DNA of 64,000 nucleotides, from contig OZ038527.1 in NCBI GenBank assembly GCA_964036665.1, positions 26,515,901-26,579,900 of the forward strand, read 5' to 3'. A program made the translations under genes and the position numbers. Of the stretch, positions 640 through 63,500 are shown in pieces. The stretch's first letter is position 1. The number at the start of each line of letters is the position of its first letter. The stretch comes from Gordius sp. MW1 (lineage: Eukaryota; Nematomorpha; Gordioida; Gordea; Gordiidae). The notes below the pieces were generated by a model that was given only the letters and a program-made list of their open reading frames with translations, made no database searches and was not told the origin of the DNA.

Positions 640-1445
640 TCAATTGTGCAATCTCCTCTTGTTGGAACATTTATTCTGATTATGCCTGGTACCCCTCAAG
701 CTAGGCAGACAGCTTGTCCAAGTATATTTATTGTTTATTATATTTTTAGCATCATCTGTATATGTCGTTAGAGCAGCAATACAAAATGTGCAATGTTCTC
801 GAATTCTGCCTGGAAACCTTCTAAGCTAGGCAGACAGTTTGCCCAAGTATATTCATAGTTCATTTTTTATTATATTTATGCCATCATCTGTAAATGTTAT
901 TGGAGCAGCAATTCAAAGTGAGCAATGTCTTCGAATTCTGCCTAGAACCTTCCAAGCTAAGCAGTCAGCTTGCCCAAGTAAATTCATAGTTCATTATTTA
1001 TAATATTATGGCATCATCTGTAAATGTTGTTGGAGCAGCAATACAAAATGTTCAATGTTCTCGCTGCCTAAAACCTTCCAAGCTAGGCAGACAGCTTGCC
1101 CAAGTAAATTCATAGTTCATTGTTTATAATATTTTAGCATCATCTGTAAATGTTGTTGGAGCAGCAATTCAAAGTGTGCAATGTCTTAGAATTCTGCCTA
1201 CCTTCCAAGCTAGGCAGTCAGCTTGCAATAAATTCATTGTTTATAATATTATAGCATCATCTGTATATGTCATTGGTATAGCAATACAAAATGGGCAATC
1301 TTCACAAATTCTGCCTAGAACCCCCCAAGCTAAGCAGACAGCTTGTCCAAGTAAATTTATAGTTCATTGTATATAATATTATAGCATCATCTGTATGTCG
1401 TTGGTAAAGCAATACAAAATGTGCAATCTCCACAAATTCTGCCTA
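640..1445. repeat. Tandem array, unit about 125 bp, about six units
   Basis: Each unit contains a CAAGCT-AGGCAGAC-AGCTTG block, an inverted hexamer around an 8-base loop. Blocks lie near 697, 821, 950, 1078, 1205 and 1325. The rest of the unit reads roughly as 'cccaagtaaattcatag', 'agcatcatctgtaaatg', then 'gagcagcaatacaaaatg'. Units differ by about 10-15 percent. The frame at 1176-1376 is a by-product. Confidence 0.85.
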
Positions 1446-45553: not shown

Positions 45554-48500
45554 CTAAATCTGCTTGTTTTCGGTGACATCTTTAAATAGCTTGGAGGAAC
45601 GATTTGCTAAGGAGAGTAAAGTGTTAGAAGCTGACTTAGCCATAGATTTAGCCGCTTTTTCTGTATGAGCAAGTCCAGTGGCGTAAAGCCTACTCGATAT
45701 AAGTTCCTTGTTTTCGGCCGAGTTTTGCGGTGTCAAGCAATTCTTCAAGTAAGTTGCTCTTTCGTTAAGCCCGGCTGCCCTGAGCTGATTTACCACGGAT
45801 TGAATGGACGTTTCTCTGTGATATGTCGAGCCTTTGTTGTGAGTAGAGGCTGTGATATAAAATTTGTTATGTTCAAACAACTTTTTCCGTTCAAACAATA
45901 CATAAATGTTATGATTCATCTTTCAATAGACTTTAACGGCGTTTGCCATGATTTATATTATAAAAAGGAGGGGGGGGGGGGAACTTCTAGTTTATAAAAA
46001 ATTGAATTTGGAAGGAGGGAAAGGTGGCCCCTCCTTAAGTCTTCCTGGATATGCCCATATTTGGGTAAATTTATTTAACGACTTCTTCCATTTAAAGACT
46101 TCATAATTTCAATGGGCTCGATGGGTGCTTTGAAAGAAATGTCCGGCCTGGCACGATACCGGCGGACACGCTGATAAGATTCGGGCAATTCGGGCATAAT
46201 TAAATTATAATCATAGTTTATTTTCTTGTTACTTTTTTATTAGATTGTTTATGGCGAATGATGCCACCCCCAAGTTAAATCTTTGCCCGACTCCATTTCT
46301 TAGCTACGTTTATGGGAAGGATTGAAATATTTATATTTATGTAGCCCTTTCATTGTTCGCAATACGCATGTGTGCCGTCGAGACTTAAAACAAAGGCGTC
46401 ATGCCATTTTCACACAATGCATGCACATATAGGTGTTTAATTCTAATTCATTTAATTTTTTAACAAATAAAATTTGGTTCAATTTGTCTTATTAATTACC
46501 TAATCTACGCTTACTTATTTCTAATTTCTATAATCATTAATTTCCATATCATTCTTTTTTGACCCATTTCATTTGCCCTTTATATTCCCTTATCTACGCT
46601 ATTACTTATTTTTATAATACATAATTTATTCACAACCATTCTTTTTTTGCTTCATATAAAATCTTCTCCATTATATTCTATAACAAAGTAAGTATTACTA
46701 ATCGAAATAATTTTTATTAACCTAAATGCATTAGCAATTAATATTTTAAAATTGTGTGACAATTTTTTAATAGTGGTTGAAAGATTTTAGGATTGCATAA
46801 ATTCGGGTCTAACGGGCAAATTTAATTGATCGGGCCGGGCAGCTCGGTTTGGGCATGGCCGAGCGGACACTTAGAAGGCGTCAGGCGGACAATTTAGTTC
46901 AAACTTTGGACCGGGCCGGGTTCGGGCAATAAATTCAAAACAAATCTGACCTCTGGTGCTTTTGGCACTGCCGGAGAAATTTATGATACCGACATCTGAT
47001 AAAGTTAACAAATTATACGTCGGATACAGGCGCGCAGGATTTTCTCAGGGGGAATTTATTCATAATGTAACAAAAATAAACTTCGCGTACATAATATGCG
47101 AAACATCAAGGCGCCATATAACCAGCTTTGGAAAAATCTCTTCTCTTTATTCATCAGAGCATTTACCATCGCTTTTATACCTTAAAAAGGGACATGGACC
47201 TTATGCAAGTTATTCAACTGGCAGAAAATATTATCATTTAGGTAAAATTAAATAATGGCGGAAACAAAAGCAAAATTATATGAGTTTGATCTGAAAAAAT
47301 TCTCTAGTTGCTAATAAGCAAAATTATTCAGTCACTCAATGTTTACTTGACATTAGTACAGCTAAACGAATGGTGTTTAGAAAAAAAACAAGTTTTTCAT
47401 AATTTACAATCAATGGTGGACAATTATAATGGTGGGGTGCAAGCTTTTAGTCGAAAATTAAATTCGAAAAATTGAATGTATACATTATGTTTCCAGGCTT
47501 TTATAAGTGTCTCAAAATCTTTTATGCAACTAAACTATAATGTTTTAGCCCATTTAATCTAATTATTAATCAAAGAAATTTCCAAATTTTGGTCAAGGGG
47601 GTAGAAAAGTCCCGCTTCCTCTTGGCTACACGCCTGGTGAGATATAATATAATATAGACAATCTCACCTAATAAAACCAATACTTAAACGTGAACAATTA
47701 GTATAAATTAATAATGCAGTATACTAGTAAACAGCTAGTGATAATTAAGTAAGGGCGCAGGCCGACATCTTTGAGGAGATACACAAATAAAAGGCGTTTT
47801 ATCTTGTTACATTTCTTACATTCAATTGCAAAAATCTATTTAAGTTAATATCACATAACAAAAACCCATCTCATGTTGGGTAAAGATAATGCAACACTAC
47901 ATTGTAATTTGTTGAAATATTTTTTTTGTTATTGCTAAAAACTAATATTGCCGTATCTATATTTGATAATTTATTTAAATGTACAAGAACTATCACCAAA
48001 AATGGCGTGCTAAGTTACTTATAAAGTTTTAATAATTTTATACAATTTATGGGCTCGTTATTGGTTGTCCGTCCTGTCCTGTCCAACTTGTAATGTTTTA
48101 ATAATTGCTGTGTAAACGCATAAGGGTTTTTTATGGCTGTGGACTTATGCTTCTGGAAAAGTCTTTTACTTTGCTTTCACATATAAACTAGCTAATGACC
48201 GCTGGTTGGCCTTACCTTTATAACGGATAATTATTATACTTATCGTATTTTAGCATTCCTTTTCCGCGACTCTGGCATGTAATATTAGTGATAAATTTTA
48301 CCCCGAGATAATGTTGTTAATGCAAAATTACTTGAATCATCATCGAGATCGAGACGGGGGTTAGATAGGTAATCTAAAAGCACTTCGAAATCCTGGTGAG
48401 AGCATATTCTAGCGAAGGCAGGCACCAAGTTTTTGTCGATAATTAGTTGGGCAATGTCGAAATTTAGGAAGCGGACCTCGTTGGTAGGCCCTCGTCTATC

Positions 48501-51500: not shown

Positions 51501-54500
51501 GGCAAGTTGACGAGCCACCCTAATAAATCCATCATTCTTTTTCAACTATTTCCCATGTCTTTCTGCAGTGTACCCCATTGTTAAAATACAAAAAGTCAAT
51601 TTACCTTCCTCATTAGTCAATAAATAAAAAAGAAGGTTAACAAATGATTATTTTATAAAATGCAGATGGCACTTTAACATCACATGATCACAGTATTTTT
51701 GTTTTTTATTATCATAAGTAAATGATATACATTCTAAAATGTTGTTTTAATGTTTAACTAGTTCAATATTTTTTATTTAGTTTTAAAAACACTTACCAAA
51801 ATTACTATAATGTATATGTCCTTCCCTTTTTTGTGCACATTTCAAAATGGCGGAAAAAAGCTACACTTGTTTATAGTTAATGAGCAGTCTATCTAGTCTA
51901 CTCAAAATCTAACAAATATGCATATATATACCTTAAAGAATCGATAATTTCTTCCATAATTTTGGTGCATATATCTTCGAAGATGAAAGGTTCTGTACTA
52001 TCGACCCAAGGGGATCGCGCATCTATATCACCGCGTATTTCTAGCATTTGTTCATTCGCGAATTCCAAAAAGGCATTAAACAATGTTTCTTCAACTCCGT
52101 TGACAATCATATCAGCTAATATGTTACCGACCTAACTCCAAAAAACAATTTTTATTTAAATTCGTTTAAAAAATTATTTGTAGGGAGACAACTAAAAAAA
52201 AGATCTAAATCGTTATCATTCAAAAGGGGCCAAGAGTCTGCAAAAGTCTTAAAGTTATATATCGGATTATGAAAATCCCAAGTTGTTGTCTGATTAAAGG
52301 ATGAGTAGAGTATCTAGATTTCGGGGAAGGTTTTGCTATTTATGTTAATAAAAATTATGGCTTGTTAACCGAAAGTAATAGAGTATGGTAATAACGGGAA
52401 TAAAAATATCTCAACACTAAAAATTTGATCAGATTCATATTATTAAGACAGTTATAAATATAATTACATCCTCAATTTTCATCTACTAACTATTGGAATG
52501 ATGTTAGACAATATTGAAACATTTTAATTTTTGATTTAAAATCTATTTGTCTTAGGCTTGTCTTCATATCGGATTTTGCTGCGCAGCGAAAATCGTCGTA
52601 CGGATTATATTACCCGTGTCTTAATTTCGAATTCACAGCAGCAGATTTGCATTTCAGACGCCTAACATAACAGCGATTTTGTAAGATGCAAAATTTTTCC
52701 TAAGTTTAAATGTTTTATGTTTTTTAAATTTTTAGGTATCAGCAAAGTTTAGATTTAGTCTCAAGAGTTGAAATAAACAAAAAAAAACGCTTTTAACTAT
52801 CAAAAAATAAAATATTAAAAATTATAATCGAGTTTGACCCATGAATTGAATTGGATATTTAGACAAAGACAAATTCGCGCGATTTGAATCTGATTCCGGT
52901 AGTAAGACAAGTCCCTATTCTAAAATGCTATTGAGATATTTACAGGTTCGTAAAGACCTCGGGAAAGATCGTAAAGTGTTTCGTAAGCTGGTATGCCCTT
53001 AACTAGAGAAGTTTTTAAACACATTAATATGTTGGCATCTAAGGACTCCAGGTGGCGTTTCAATTTATCCATACTCTGTATAATGGCGTCGTAAGTATGA
53101 TCTTCAGGTCCCCTGTCGTCATATATGTACATTTTATTTAATAACATTTAATCTAAATATAATTATTAAATTTGATAAAGAGCGTTTATTAAATTTCACA
53201 CCTTTAGGATATAACAGATTGAAAATGTTGTCTTAAAGTATATATTAGTTCTTTCGAGTAATACATATAACTTTTTGACCTAAGTTATCAGTAAAATGTT
53301 TAAATTTCACTTCTGGTTGTCGATTTTATAAGAATTAAAGTTAAAAGCCATAAGATAAATAAAGTGTCTAAAATATTGCAAGATGTACTTCATGTTATTT
53401 GTAGCGTCAAATTGACAAATATATAAAAAGAAACTCGGGCCTTCGGCCCTCGTGGGAAGGGGGAGAAGGGAAGGGAAGAGGGGAAGGGAAGGGGGGACGA
53501 CTCATCTGTACTTCGTATAAATGTATCATATTTGCTATGCAATTTATGGGCGAGAAAGGTGGGAAGGGGCGAGAATGCCTATGGGGGTATTAAATGCCTA
53601 ATGATTAATTAATTATTTATACAAATTTTCCATTATAGGCAAAATGATATAGGCAAAATGTAATATAGGCAAGGGTTAGGGTTAGATTTAGTGTTTGCAT
53701 CTAGTTGTGTATTACATTAGTTTTTATTGATTATGGGTCTAACAAACATTATATTATAAAACAACACAATGTTAAGAATTTGCAGAATTGTTGGGAGAAA
53801 TGTTTAATTTGAACAATTTTTAATTAAAAAAATTAAAAATTTGGCCAATGGTCACTTTTTCTCTATTGGTCAGTACCAACAGATACTCTATAAGTCAATG
53901 ATAGCCAAAAAATGGAAAAAAAACTTTTGATGCTCACTTTGGCCAATGGTCATTTTTTTCCATTGGTCAGCAGCCAGGACACGGTAAAAGTGGATATAAA
54001 TTCATAAGAGTAAAAAAAAACGAAAAAAAAATTTCCAAATCACATTTTGGCCAATGGTCCTTTTTTTCCATTGGCTAGCAGCCAGGACACGGTAAAAGTG
54101 GATATAAATTCATAATAGTCAAAAAAAACGAAAAAAAAGTTTTCGAATCACATTTTGGCCAATGGTCATTTTATTCCATTGGTCAGCAGCCAGCGGACGG
54201 CCAAAAAGTGATAATAGCAATGGTAGGAACAGGAACAATCATAATAGTCAAAAAAAAAACGAAAAAAATATTTTCGATTCACATTTTGGCCAATGGTCAT
54301 TTTTCCATCGGTCAGGAGCCAGCGGACGGCCAAAAAGTCATAATAGCAATGGTAGTAACAGGAACAATCATAATAGTCAAAAAAAAACGAAAAAATAAAC
54401 TCGGATTCACATTTTGGCCAATGGTCATTTTAAAGTCTTATTATCAATGATAGTAACAAGAACAATCATAAAAAACCCGGGATTCTAACCCAAAAACTAG

Positions 54501-57500
54501 TTAAATTGCATAGCAATTAAAAGTAAACAACTTTTATTTATGTTTATTATATAACGGCCAAAAAGTCATAATAGCAATGGTAGAAACAGGAACAATCATA
54601 ATTGTCAAAAAAAACGAAAAAAATAATTTCGATTCACATTTTGGCCAATGGTCATTTTTTTCATTGGTCAGCAGCCAGCGGACGGCCAAAAATTCTTATT
54701 ATCAATGATAGTAACAAGAGCAATCATAAGAGTCAAAAAAACTCGGGATTCTAACCCCAAAACTAGTTAAATTGCATAGCAATTAAAAAGTAAACAACTT
54801 TTATTTATGTTTATTATATAACTAGTTAAATTGCATAGCATTAAAAGTAAACAACTTTTATCTATGTTTATTATATAATAGATAATTTAACAAATCTTAT
54901 ATATAACACACCGAGGGAGATAGAGATGAGGGGTGGGGCACCTCTTTCTCATGCATTAATTTAAAAAAGCGATAACCTAATATACCCAATGCAAATAGAT
55001 AGGGAGGGTAACGGACAACGGACGGACGGACACCAAAAAACGAGCCCATAAATTGCATAGCAATTAATAATTATTATCTAGCATAATTGTGAGGATAATT
55101 CCTTAACCCCCATAAGAATGGGTTTAATCTAATTTGGCCTTATTTATACCCTCGCTTATGTGACCTGAAAATTAACTATGACATACTGATGAGCTCCAAT
55201 AAGAACGAAAATGTTATATGCCTGTTATCATTTTCCACATGCTAAAAAAGATAGGGATATATATAGTCAAATTAGTCTCTAACCAAAATTGCCTCTAGAT
55301 GGGGCTTAACATTTAAGTTAATTGAGGCACTTATGAATGGGGTTATTATTATCTTCTTCAAAATAGTTCTATTTTTAATTGCTATGCAACTTATGGGCTC
55401 GTTTTTTGGTTGTCCGTTGTCCGTCCGTTGTCTACCCTCCCTATCTATTTGCATTGGGTATATTAGGTTATCGATTTTTTAAATTAATGTATGAGAAAGA
55501 GGTGCCCCACCCCTCATCTCTATCTCCCTCGCTGTGTTATTTTTTAAATTAATGCATAAGAGGTGCCCCACCCCTCATCTCTATCTCCCTCGCTTTCGGG
55601 CGGGGTCGGGTTTTAATTGCTACGCAATTAATTAATGCATAAGTATATCTATTCGTTTTTGAATTGGGTAACATTGATATTAATTGCTATAATTACTCTA
55701 TGCCCTCCACTACAAGGGTTTGGGTTAGAATCTCGGAGTTTTTTTAGACTCTTATGATTGTTCTTGTTACTACCATTGATAATAAGACTTTTTGGCCGTC
55801 TGCTGGCTGCTGACCAATGAAAAAAATGACCATTGGCCAAAATGTGAATCCGAGTTTATTTTTTCGTTTTTTTTGACTATTATGATTGTTCCTGTTACTA
55901 CCATTGCTATTATGACTTTTTGGCCGTCTGCTGGCTGCTGACCAATGAAAAAAATGACCATTGGCCAAAATGTGAATCCAAGTTTATTTTTTCGTTTTTT
56001 TTGACTATTATGATTGTTCCTGTTACTACCATTGCTATTATGACTTTTTGGCCGTCTGCTGACCAATGAAAAAAATGACCATTGGCCAAAATGTGAATCG
56101 AAGTTTATTTTTTCGTTTTTTTTTTGATTATTATGATTGTTCCTGTTACTACCATTGCTATTATGACTTTTTGGCCGTCCGCTGGCTGCTGACCGATGGA
56201 AAAAATGACCATTGGCCAAAATGTGATTCCAAGTTTTTTTTTCGTTTTAGTTTTGACTATTACGATTGTTCTTGTTACTATCATTGATAATAAGACTTTT
56301 TGGCCGTCCACTGGCTGCTGACCATTGAAAAAAATGATTGGCCAAAATGTGAATCCGAGTTTATTTTTTCGTTTTTTTTTTTGACTATTATGATTATTCC
56401 TGTTACTACCATTGCTATTATGACTTTTTGGCCGTCCGCTGGCTCCTGACCGATGGAAAAAATGACCATTGGCCAAAATGTGAATCGAAATTATTTTTTT
56501 CTTTTTTTTTTACTATTATGATTGTTCCTGTTCCTACCATTGCTATTATGACTTTTTGGCCGTCCGCTGGCTGCTGACCAATGGAATAAAATGACCATTG
56601 GCCAAAATGTGATTCGAAAATTTTTTTTTCGTTTTTTTTTGACTATTATGAATTTATATCTACTTTTACCGTGTCCTGGCTGCTGACCAATGGAATAAAA
56701 TGACCATTGGCCAAAATGTGATTTGAAAATTTTTTTTTCGTTTTTTTTACTCTTATGAATTTATATCCATTTTTACCGTGTGCTGGCTGCTGACCGATGG
56801 AAAAAAATGACCATTGGCCAAAGTGAGCATCAAATTTTTTTCCCCGTTTTTTTGGCTATCATTGACTTATAGAGTATCTGTTGGTACTGACCAATGGAGA
56901 AAAAATGACCATTCGCCAAATTTTTGATTTTTTTAATTAAAAATTGTTCAAATTCAACAAAAAATTTCTCCCAACAATTCTGCAAATTCTTAACATTGTG
57001 ATGTTTTATAATAAAATGTTTGTTAGACCCATAATCACCAAAGGCCGTAAAAACTAATGTAATACGCAACTAGATGCAAACACTAAATCTAACCCTAACC
57101 CTTGCCTATATTACATTTTGCCTATATTACATTTTGCCTATAAATGGAAAATTTGTATAAATAATTAATTAATCATTAGGCATTTAATACCCCCCTATAG
57201 GCATTCTCGCCCCTTCCCACCTTTCTCGCCCATAAATTGCATAGCAAATATGATACATTTATACGAAGTAAAGATGAGTCGTCCCCCCTTCCCTTCTCCC
57301 CTCCCCCTTCCCACGAGGGCCGAAGGCCCGAGTTTTTTATTATACTATCGATATAAATGAATAATACACGTTAAAACGTACTGTCCGAATCCCGAGATGA
57401 AATCTTTCAGGGTTTGGCAACAGACTAGACGCGCCTCTAAACTCATGACAAGCGGAGTTTGGGGGTTAAACAAGATGCTTTCTTCTAAGAATCTCTTTAG

Positions 57501-60500: not shown

Positions 60501-63500
60501 GTGGTCCTCGTCCGTCTTGTCCACACCTATGCTTTGGCACAATTCTAAAGCGGTAGACCAAAAATCGAAAGCGGAACTTGAAGCAACATCGCCATTGTCG
60601 TGAAGATGATCTGAGGAGTCGTATAACTTCAGCATTTGCGAGCCGTACTTGAGGGCAAGCCTGTGGTCGTGCGAGGATAAGGCTTTGGAGCATAGGTAAT
60701 TATACAGCCGACACTTGGAGCGTGATTTAGAGGAAGTTGCTCCTTGATGTGGTGAGTAACGGGGTTCCAGCAAGCTAAACAATTTCTCCAGCGGGCCAAC
60801 CGATTTGTAGAGATGCGGCGAGGGAAGGATCAAAAAGGTATTCACCATTTCTAAACGTGCATAAAGTGCGTACTAGTGTTGTAAAAAAGGTGGGGGGGGG
60901 GGTTTGTTTGGTCGACCTTCGGTTTAACTAAGACTAATTGATCGACTCAGGTCTGTCTTTGTCAAATTTGGACTAAGCCTAGAGGTCGACTAAGAAAAAT
61001 AGACCAAAAACCTAGCCAAAAGTTGATTAAACAAAACCCAAGCTTCTGACCAAAATGGCTGGAAGGTGGTCACATTTTTCTGCCCGAAACCGTTCGGGTC
61101 CGAATTTTTAGCTAGCCCGGCCAAGCCGAAATCATTAGAGCTGACCAGCCCGAAATGATGATTTTATCTTTTTACCACTAATTTTGCTATAAACACGTAA
61201 ATAATTGTTAAATCAATATCTCAATTTTTTCGTTTAGATGAGAACTAAAGTTAATAAATAATATACAATCAAATCAAAAAAGTGCCAAAGTAATATACGA
61301 AAACAAAATAATACACTATATAAAAAAATCTTAAGGCGCCCTAATTGCCCGAATCTTGTTGTGGTGCCTACCCGGGCCCCACCCGCTAGTCTGATGCCCT
61401 ATCAAAAAAAGAGGTTTTTTATGGAATTCACCTCTAAAATCAAAAACCTTCATGAGGGACGCAACGATAAAACTTTATTTTCTCTCAAATTGAGAGTTCT
61501 CGATGCTTACAAACTCTTATCAGAATTTAAACGAGGATAAGAGGCTTCGCAAATTTATTGACTTTTATATATTTTTCAAAGTCCTGCACCGGGCAGCTTT
61601 AATAATTCGCGAAAGGCGGGGCGGTGCTTAGAGCTTGTTTCACTAAAACTAAACACACGCCTAGGACAGGCCGAACTTTTCAAGTCTGTGATAGTTAATA
61701 AAAATAGTTTCATCTAACCGATGAAATCTTTTTCACAAGCTAGTCGCAATTGAAGTGGTACACAATCCTTCCTCATCTCCTGTATTATGGCCAAAGCTTC
61801 TAAAAAATCCACCTCGGCCTCGAAATTATCATCAAGTTCTGGAGCATCATCCACAACGACTATTGGCTTGAACAATTGCACGCACAACCTAAGAAGGCAT
61901 AGCCATAGCATATGAAATAATGATTACAAATCAAATATTTAGCCAGTTTCGCAATTGACCATTATAAAGCCATAACCTAGACAAATTGCCAAAAGGAGTT
62001 TATATATAAACGTAATCAGTCGGGCCCATAAACAATCTTCAAATTTAGGCTCGGGCGAGGTCGAAAAAAGTAAAGCCAACCAGCGGTCATTAGCTAGTTT
62101 GCGAAAGCAAAATAAAAATCTTTTACAGGAGCATAAGTCCACAGCCTTAAAAACCCGTATAAGTTTCCCCAGATTGAAAGATTACGAGTTGGACAGGATG
62201 AAAAACCAAAACGAGTCCATAAATTGCGTATGAATTAATAAGTTTACGTTTTGTCGGAAATAAATATTCAATCCTCCCCTCTCTCTCTCTTATATTTACG
62301 CGTAACGATTGGTGTTTTACAAAGGGCTGGGTTCTGTTGAGTCGACCTCAAGGCCTAGTCGAAATTTGAAAGACATACCAGAGTCGACCGTTTCTTAGTT
62401 GAAGGTTGGCCAAACAAAACCCAGCCGTTTTTACGACACTAGAAAATAAAAAATCATGGTTTTTGTAAAACCTTACACATTATTATTTTGTTTACGCATT
62501 TTTCCTTTTATATATATATTAAAGTAAAGGAAGGAAAGTATTGTTTAATTTTATATACTTCGCGTATTGGATATAGAGAGAGGCAACTAAGAGAATTTAT
62601 AGTCGTTTCAGCCGTAATTATAATAAATTTTGAAGAATTTTCATAGTTAGAAAGGGGCAGCCGCCCTTCCCTGCCCCCCCCCCTGGCTACGCCCATGAAT
62701 TACCGAGCCCAATAGAGTTGAACATCGAGGGTATCGACGGCAGAATTAACGTATTCCCCAATAACGTCAACCAAAACAGATCGCAAATCCCTTTTCAGAG
62801 TGCTGCTGGAATCATCGTCGTGGAAATCTTTCAAGTGCCATTTTAAAAGAGCTAGGCCGTGTTGGATCAAAATTTGGTCTGAAGAGGCGAGCATGTATCT
62901 CAACAGAGATTCCAAACAAGGTGGCAAAGAATGACTAGCTGCACTATGCCCGAAAGATAGCTTTTGTAAATCCAACACATCTAAAGGTCAAATAATGTAT
63001 GGCAAAATTTGAGGTTAGTGGTCGATCGAAAAAGGTAAATTAATGATTCAACATGTTTTATATATCATTTGGGTGTTTTTTGGGAACGCACTTATGATAG
63101 CCTAGGGTTGTAAAAACGGATGGGTTTTGTTTGGTCGACCTTCGGTTTAACTTGTCGACTAAGAAAAACAGACCAAAAACTTTTGGTTTCTTTATGTTAA
63201 GTCGACTAAAACTAAAGGCCGACATTACAAAACCCAGCCGTTTTTAACATAACTAGGTATGGTGAAAAACTTGATATGTTTAAGTGTCTAAAGTTATTAT
63301 ACCGTTATAAATGATTTGCCAATGGTTTAGGGAATGGGCTAGGGGGAAAGAACGCGCTCTATGCGACACTTTACATATGATTTCTCTCAATTCTTGCGGA
63401 TTTTCATTCAATTCTCTAAGCTTGGCAACCGTTACATCTAGTCCATACTTATGTAGTATCTCTATCGACCTTTCATGAATAACAAAATTCATTATCAAAT

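What the first reader, a model, noticed from the sequence alone, without database searches (positions are those of the whole stretch)
53431..57335. 3.9 kb foldback element with tandem-repeat arms fills an NBAS intron
Seen: inverted arms, each built of a unique outer part and an array of units of about 120 bp, around a core that is itself an inverted pair. The arrays differ in copy number (about 7 versus 10), so arms expand or contract independently. The element makes up over 90 percent of intron 10, and the splice phase across it is intact, so it must be spliced out. Inference: the pre-mRNA would fold into a hairpin of more than 1 kb, a possible ADAR or small-RNA substrate. It resembles the architecture of Foldback elements, but I recognise no known family.
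Basis: partly seen in the sequence, partly recalled or inferred. Interest (0 to 1): 0.8.

Follow-up and report, generated by a model that had tools for sequence, protein, structure and literature searches.

The report
Two opposed HINEs around a retrozyme
The apparent hairpin transposon inside this gene's intron is really two separate copies of a very common rolling-circle-type mobile element lying in opposite directions on either side of a small ribozyme-carrying repeat, so it is a new family of a known kind, though this family also lands inside its own copies.

Summary
The inverted arms are real, and they with their centre fill 91% of the intron (53113-57381, GT..AG, frame open). It is not a foldback transposon. 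Each arm is a whole ~1.8 kb repeat; 15 of 20 fetched relatives are intact single units. Subterminal inverted repeats, a GTCC-type microsatellite, 107-129 bp central repeats, a 3' palindrome, T-rich flanks and one precise nested insertion without target-site duplication are hallmarks of HINEs (non-autonomous Helentron relatives). The exact 3' end occurs 3,673 times in the 212 Mb genome. The left copy is nearer to 25 of 31 other 3' ends (98-99.6%) than to its partner (97.4%); its junction with the centre was not seen in 39 other scored loci. The centre (55067-55357) is a diverged hammerhead-ribozyme repeat, retrozyme-like. No autonomous partner was found at 9 inspected Rep loci. Twist: inverted 5'-5' pairs exceed uniform scatter (small sample), and 37 places carry the junction of a HINE inserted, inverted, at one internal site of its own family (6,611 empty sites). 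So foldbacks do arise here, by self-insertion, not as a mobile unit. A long intronic double strand is predicted; its effects are untested.

The parts
53434..55066 (-). Left HINE copy, whole; 5' end at 55066 (TAATTGC on the minus strand), 3' end at 53434 (..GGCCCGAG)
55376..57332 (+). Right HINE copy, whole; 5' end at 55376, 3' end at 57332; of five loci compared by BLAST nearest to L017's second copy and L040
55067..55357 (+). Single diverged copy of a ~310-bp hammerhead-bearing repeat (retrozyme-like); the family has 74 exact 36-base ribozyme cores in the genome
55176..55236 (+). Decayed hammerhead ribozyme (RF02275, 18.9 bits, below gathering score 52)
53532..53554 (-). 3' subterminal inverted repeat of the left copy, 98 nt from its 3' end; inverted copy of the 5' end
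53437..53449 (-). 3' terminal palindrome (GGGCCGAAGGCCC) of the left copy
57317..57329 (+). 3' terminal palindrome of the right copy
53938..54432 (-). Central tandem repeats (108/129 bp) of the left copy
55739..56822 (+). Central tandem repeats (128/107 bp) of the right copy
53113..57381 (-). Host intron (GT..AG, frame open across the splice)

Best explanation
Two copies of one abundant HINE-type element (non-autonomous, presumably copied by a Helentron-type Rep/helicase by rolling-circle replication and inserted without target-site duplication into T-rich DNA) inserted independently, in opposite directions, at the two A/T-rich edges of an older hammerhead retrozyme-like copy in this intron. 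The pair is a local arrangement, not a transposing unit. Such arrangements seem favoured because the family tends to insert beside and inside its own copies. Shown: element ends, anatomy, copy number, one nested insertion without duplication, a junction not found at 39 other scored loci, 37 self-insertion junctions. Inferred: rolling-circle mechanism, the helper, independence and order of the two insertions.
For: Single ~1.8 kb unit: 15 of 20 fetched copies have both ends 1640-1872 bases apart. 3,673 exact 3' ends, reversed control 0. Element|centre junction: apart from the window, none of 39 scored loci (of 1677 candidates) matches beyond base 88 of the 111-base probe, in which the element ends at base 67. 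Left copy against 31 other 3' ends (480 bases, gaps left out): 25 at 98.2-99.6%, 2 at 97.0-97.2%, 4 at 62-86%; against its partner 97.4% (the 20 fetched loci were chosen as best matches to the left arm, which favours it). Right copy by BLAST: 89.5-93.6% to five loci, 87.2% to the left copy. Precise nested insertion in L036: target CTATGTTT^ATTATATAATAG, flanks 57/57 and 60/60 identical to the uninterrupted copy L033, nothing duplicated or lost. First base past the 3' end is T in 26 of 26 rows; flanks 77% A+T against 67% in the window. Tandem 3'-to-5' abutting: 134 places. HINE features as described in PMC4067079 and PMC7492417 (passages).
Against: No autonomous partner with the same ends at 9 inspected Helitron-Rep loci (L037-L039, L041-L046) of 150 scored; the two whose own 3' end could be read (L038, L044) are canonical CTAG-type Helitrons. 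The 3' subterminal repeat lies 98 nt from the 3' end in 25 of 31 ends (66-113 in the other six, 85 in the right copy), further than the 38-60 bp given for mite HINEs. Inverted 5'-5' pairs are commoner than uniform scatter (3 seen, 0.29 expected; 2 of 15 intact 5' ends in the fetched loci against 0.05-0.2 expected), so pure chance is not the whole story. Over 480 bases the right copy is no nearer to others (96-98% apart from the 4 distant ends) than to the left copy (97.4%). No outside relative was compared.
Confidence: 0.87

Rival explanations
1. A true foldback (FB/Galileo/Mutator-like) transposon moving as one 3.9 kb unit with internally repetitive terminal inverted repeats.
For: Long inverted arms with tandem units that differ in number, as in Galileo F copies and Tetris (PMC3573991, PMC4079207, passages); inverted pairs recur in the genome. 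Galileo also has chimeric copies with unlike arms and no duplication, so unlike arms alone do not exclude it.
Against: 15 of 20 fetched copies are single units with a distinct 5' end; no 7-10 bp duplication at 53431/57335 by eye (flanks also) and none in the nested insertion; the junction with the centre was not found at 39 other scored loci; the spacers of the four 5'-5' pairs inspected all differ.
Confidence: 0.04
2. One inverted duplication event: a single HINE was copied and turned round at this site (for example by template switching), so the arms are sisters.
For: L017 shows a pair broken at mirror-image points around a 1.67 kb centre, a junction found at one locus in the genome.
Against: In the window both copies keep intact 5' and 3' ends; the left copy is nearer to 25 of 31 other ends than to its partner, and the right copy is nearer by BLAST to each of five loci than to the left copy.
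Confidence: 0.04
3. Assembly artefact at a palindrome.
For: Palindromes are hard to assemble; no reads were available.
Against: The aligned arms are 87.2% identical with indels, not mirror copies; both outer junctions look like ordinary insertions in T-rich DNA; the intron's splice frame is intact.
Confidence: 0.04

Closest known systems
HINE / DINE-1-like elements (Helentron-associated; mite HINE-Mo, oyster Cg_HINE)
   Same: Subterminal inverted repeats (palindromic, as in the mite families), 3' palindrome, T-rich insertion without duplication, GTCC-type microsatellite, central tandem repeats, high copy number, tandem neighbours
   Different: 3' subterminal repeat mostly 98 nt from the end (38-60 in the mite families); autonomous partner not found; a favoured self-insertion site inside the element
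Animal non-LTR retrozymes with type I hammerhead ribozymes (PMC7229834, passages)
   Same: The core family: ~310-bp repeat, hammerhead core, some copies in tandem 363-369 bp apart
   Different: The window copy is single and its ribozyme stem II has a mismatch; activity and circular RNA untested
Foldback transposons (FB, Galileo, Tetris)
   Same: Outward look: inverted arms with tandem repeats
   Different: No target-site duplication, no shared block found, arms are whole elements of another type
Canonical Helitrons of the same genome (L038)
   Same: Presumed rolling-circle mechanism
   Different: Ends are ..CTAGT with another hairpin (read by eye); no BLAST match between L038 and the HINE copy L033

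Membership tests
HINE (Helentron-associated) | Subterminal inverted repeats, one by the 5' end and one inside the 3' end | tested here: met
   An inverted copy of the 5' end follows 31 of 31 3' ends found; at 98 nt in 25, at 66-113 nt in six
HINE (Helentron-associated) | Short palindrome near the 3' end | tested here: met
   GGGCCGAAGGCCC next to the terminus; the 19-base end has 3,673 exact places
HINE (Helentron-associated) | Insertion in T-rich/TT without target-site duplication | tested here: met
   L036 nested insertion, no duplication (one site read at both sides); 26 of 26 3' flanks begin with T
HINE (Helentron-associated) | Microsatellite and/or central tandem repeats (common, not obligatory) | tested here: met
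   GGAC/GTCC array of varying length, by eye; 107-129 bp repeats
HINE (Helentron-associated) | Autonomous Helentron partner with the same ends | tested here: inconclusive
   None at 9 Rep loci inspected of 150 scored; six of the nine were read only over 2.8 kb downstream
Foldback transposon | Long TIRs bounding one mobile unit | tested here: not met
   Arms are complete single elements; junction with the centre not found at 39 other scored loci
Foldback transposon | Target-site duplication of 7-10 bp | tested here: not met
   None at 53431/57335 by eye
Non-LTR retrozyme (core 55067-55357) | Hammerhead ribozyme | tested here: inconclusive
   RF02275 hits of 23.8-28.7 bits, all below the gathering score of 52, in 7 of 8 core-family loci and 18.9 bits in the window stretch alone; the motif CTGATGAG..CGAAA was searched for and found in all 8 loci, 9 copies
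Non-LTR retrozyme (core 55067-55357) | Tandem monomers of 150-450 bp | tested here: met
   Family only: two pairs of exact cores 363 and 369 bp apart and two copies in L015; the window copy is single
Non-LTR retrozyme (core 55067-55357) | Self-cleavage and circular RNA | not testable with these tools
   needs RNA

The most novel reading that the evidence does not exclude
This HINE family takes its own sequence as target. It inserts, inverted, at one internal site (TATYTATGTTT^ATTATATAA) and also abuts its own 5' ends in tandem, so that a rolling-circle element repeatedly builds foldback hairpins and arrays. 37 inverted self-insertion junctions against 6,611 empty sites is about ten times the 3.5 expected even if all 3,673 copies had gone only into TTT^A sites, whose number is extrapolated from the window. 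Insertion at this site in the direct sense was not searched. The intronic hairpin would then belong to a recurrent product of self-targeting and be a standing source of double-stranded RNA.
Probability: 0.3. Interest if true: 0.5.

Novelty: new member of a known kind. Interest (0 to 1): 0.3.

Why it matters
It removes a false foldback family and replaces it with a well-delimited, abundant HINE-type family, many of whose copies are nearly identical, in a chromosome-scale genome. Its self-insertion site gives natural empty/filled pairs by which Helentron target choice could be worked out. The long inverted pair in an intron remains a fair candidate for double-stranded RNA effects.

Tried and rejected
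Foldback unit: rejected (see rivals). Canonical Helitron: the open 1441-aa Rep/helicase frame in L038 has other ends. L037 looked like an autonomous partner because a HINE end lies 4.5 kb from a Rep domain; by eye the HINE there sits in the 3' part of a Helitron frame and reads as an insertion. L041 has two short weak HINE matches (43 and 28 bases) and no end. Pure chance for the inverted pair: the 100 listed 3' ends agree with chance (outward-facing within 5.5 kb 3 seen, 2.75 expected; at 2.6-5.5 kb 3 seen, 1.43 expected, P 0.17), but the 100 listed internal sites (43 clusters) do not (3 seen, 0.29 expected, P 0.004). That sample is small, the test was chosen after seeing the data, and one of the 3 is a nested insertion that also gives the single opposite-type pair seen (1 against 0.27). 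So I do not claim pure chance. L040 (an outward-facing pair): interior unrelated to the window's, second copy without a recognisable 5' end. In one search the L026 plus-strand row takes an internal subterminal repeat for a 5' end; 25 of 26 rows stand for the 5' side.
Full report
What is there. The window lies in a 212 Mb genome held as 12 contigs, unnamed. The centre is not an inverted pair.

What the arms are. A search with the first 400 bases of the left arm gave 496 candidates, of which 40 were scored, the window itself and 39 others at 97-98%. Twenty of these were fetched with about 8-9 kb on the element side (L017-L036). The shared sequence is a single unit of about 1.8 kb, not a hairpin. 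Read in its proper sense it starts TAATTGCTATGCAATTTATGGGCTCG, has a GTCC-like microsatellite, then short repeats, then central repeats of 107-129 bp, then an inverted copy of its own 5' end mostly 98 nt from the 3' end (25 of 31 ends), and finishes ..GGGCCGAAGGCCCGAG|T. 15 of the 20 fetched copies have both ends intact 1640-1872 bases apart; the other five are broken or interrupted (L017, L023, L028, L030, L036). The last 19 bases occur 3,673 times exactly, with 0 for the reversed control. In the pair the only stop-to-stop frame of 150 codons or more has 158, inside the repeats.

How it inserts. In L036 one copy sits inside another. The two flanks (57 and 60 bases) match the uninterrupted copy L033 without a gap, a duplication or a loss: CTATGTTT^ATTATATAATAG. 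The first base after the 3' end is T in 26 of 26 rows. No duplication flanks the 3.9 kb pair, by eye. These traits, the subterminal repeats, the 3' palindrome and the central repeats are those given for HINEs in PMC4067079 and PMC7492417 (passages read). The genome is rich in Helitron Rep domains (150 scored of 714 candidates). At nine inspected neighbourhoods no Rep gene has this element's ends as its own: L037 has a HINE sitting in the 3' part of a Helitron frame, by eye; L038 and L044 have CTAG-type 3' ends; L039 is a relative of L038 whose end was not reached; L041-L043, L045 and L046 show no such end in the 2.8 kb read. The helper is therefore unknown.

Why the pair is not a unit. Over the 3' 480 bases, gaps left out, 33 ends were aligned. 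Against the 31 outside the window the left copy is 98.2-99.6% identical to 25, 97.0-97.2% to two (L017_5536m, L036_6856m) and 62-86% to four (L020_1917p, L022_6869m, L023_7330m, L026_3108m); to its partner it is 97.4%. The fetched loci were chosen as best matches to the left arm, so this comparison leans that way. On this stretch the right copy is no nearer to others (96.1-98.2%, the four distant ends aside) than to the left copy. Over longer BLAST alignments it is nearer to each of five loci compared (L017's second copy 93.6%, L040 92.2%, L018, L033 and L036 89.5-90.5%) than to the left copy (87.2%). A 111-base probe over the left copy's 5' end and the centre scored 40 of 1677 candidates: the window, and 39 other loci, none of which matches beyond base 88; the element ends at base 67.

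The centre. 55067-55357 belongs to a family (2554 candidates, 40 scored; matches of about 300 bases at 79-83%). Seven fetched members align throughout. Rfam gives the hammerhead model HH9 in 7 of 8 loci, all below its gathering score, and weakly in the window copy when searched alone (18.9 bits); at the gathering threshold the whole window gives nothing. The motif CTGATGAG..CGAAA, searched for as such, is in all 8 loci (9 copies), and stem II has a mismatch in the window copy. An exact 36-base ribozyme core occurs 74 times, two pairs lying 363 and 369 bp apart. This fits the animal retrozymes of PMC7229834 (passages), but no activity was tested.

Are inverted pairs special? By exact 3' ends (first 100 of 3,673, C1:0.14-4.84 Mb), outward-facing pairs within 5.5 kb are as chance gives (3 seen, 2.75 expected), while same-direction pairs within 2.6 kb are 7 against 2.67. 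By an internal marker (first 100 of 6,611 places, 43 clusters), 5'-5' facing clusters within 1.5 kb are 3 against 0.29. Of 15 fetched copies with an intact 5' end, two (L020, L035) face another 5' end within 350 bp, against 0.05-0.2 expected under uniform scatter. The four pairs inspected (window, L035, L020, L036) have different spacers of 309, about 160, about 200 and about 57 bp, and the window's centre was not found in the others. One route to inverted pairs is visible: L036 and L047 share the same nested 5' junction, and 37 places in the genome carry it with a true 5' end (37 with another form of the pattern, 35 of them the same) against 6,611 empty sites. If every one of the 3,673 copies had gone into a TTT^A site, about 3.5 would be expected there (arithmetic, which extrapolates the window's TTTA frequency), so the site is favoured about tenfold. 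Seven of the 37 lie in three clusters 2.0-2.6 kb apart and may not be independent. Only L036 was read at both junctions, and the direct-sense junction was not searched. The window pair did not arise this way, since both its 5' ends are intact.

Consequence for the intron. The unspliced intron is predicted to fold into a long hairpin (-2500 kcal/mol, 1028 pairs over more than 1.5 kb).

Verdict. A new family of a known kind, with an ordinary explanation for the striking structure and a modestly interesting self-targeting habit. Whether this family is already in a repeat library was not checked by sequence.

Noticed in passing
L017:2584-4265 (C8:9864131-9865812): Two HINE arms broken at mirror-image points around a 1.67 kb centre that begins GGCCGGTGTAAT and ends ATTACACCGGCC; this junction is found at one locus only. 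Origin unknown.
   Followed up: partly
genome, e.g. C1:6396069 and 6397772; C4:22286975 and 22288960: Neighbouring tandem HINE junctions with the same spacer, as expected of rolling-circle read-through or of unequal exchange.
   Followed up: no
window 697-1445 and 1911-2323: Further tandem arrays of 121-126 bp units (one row also as 247), with no BLAST match to the HINE copy L033; carrier not examined.
   Followed up: no
window 48027-48084 and 62191-62241: Short fragments of the HINE 5' end (85% and 81%).
   Followed up: no
L038:935-5257: Open 1441-aa Helitron Rep/PIF1 helicase frame with tandem repeats upstream.
   Followed up: partly
window 53673-53685: A short TTAGGG-like stretch (GGGTTAGGGTTAG) in both HINE copies of the window and in L033; meaning unknown.
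   Followed up: no
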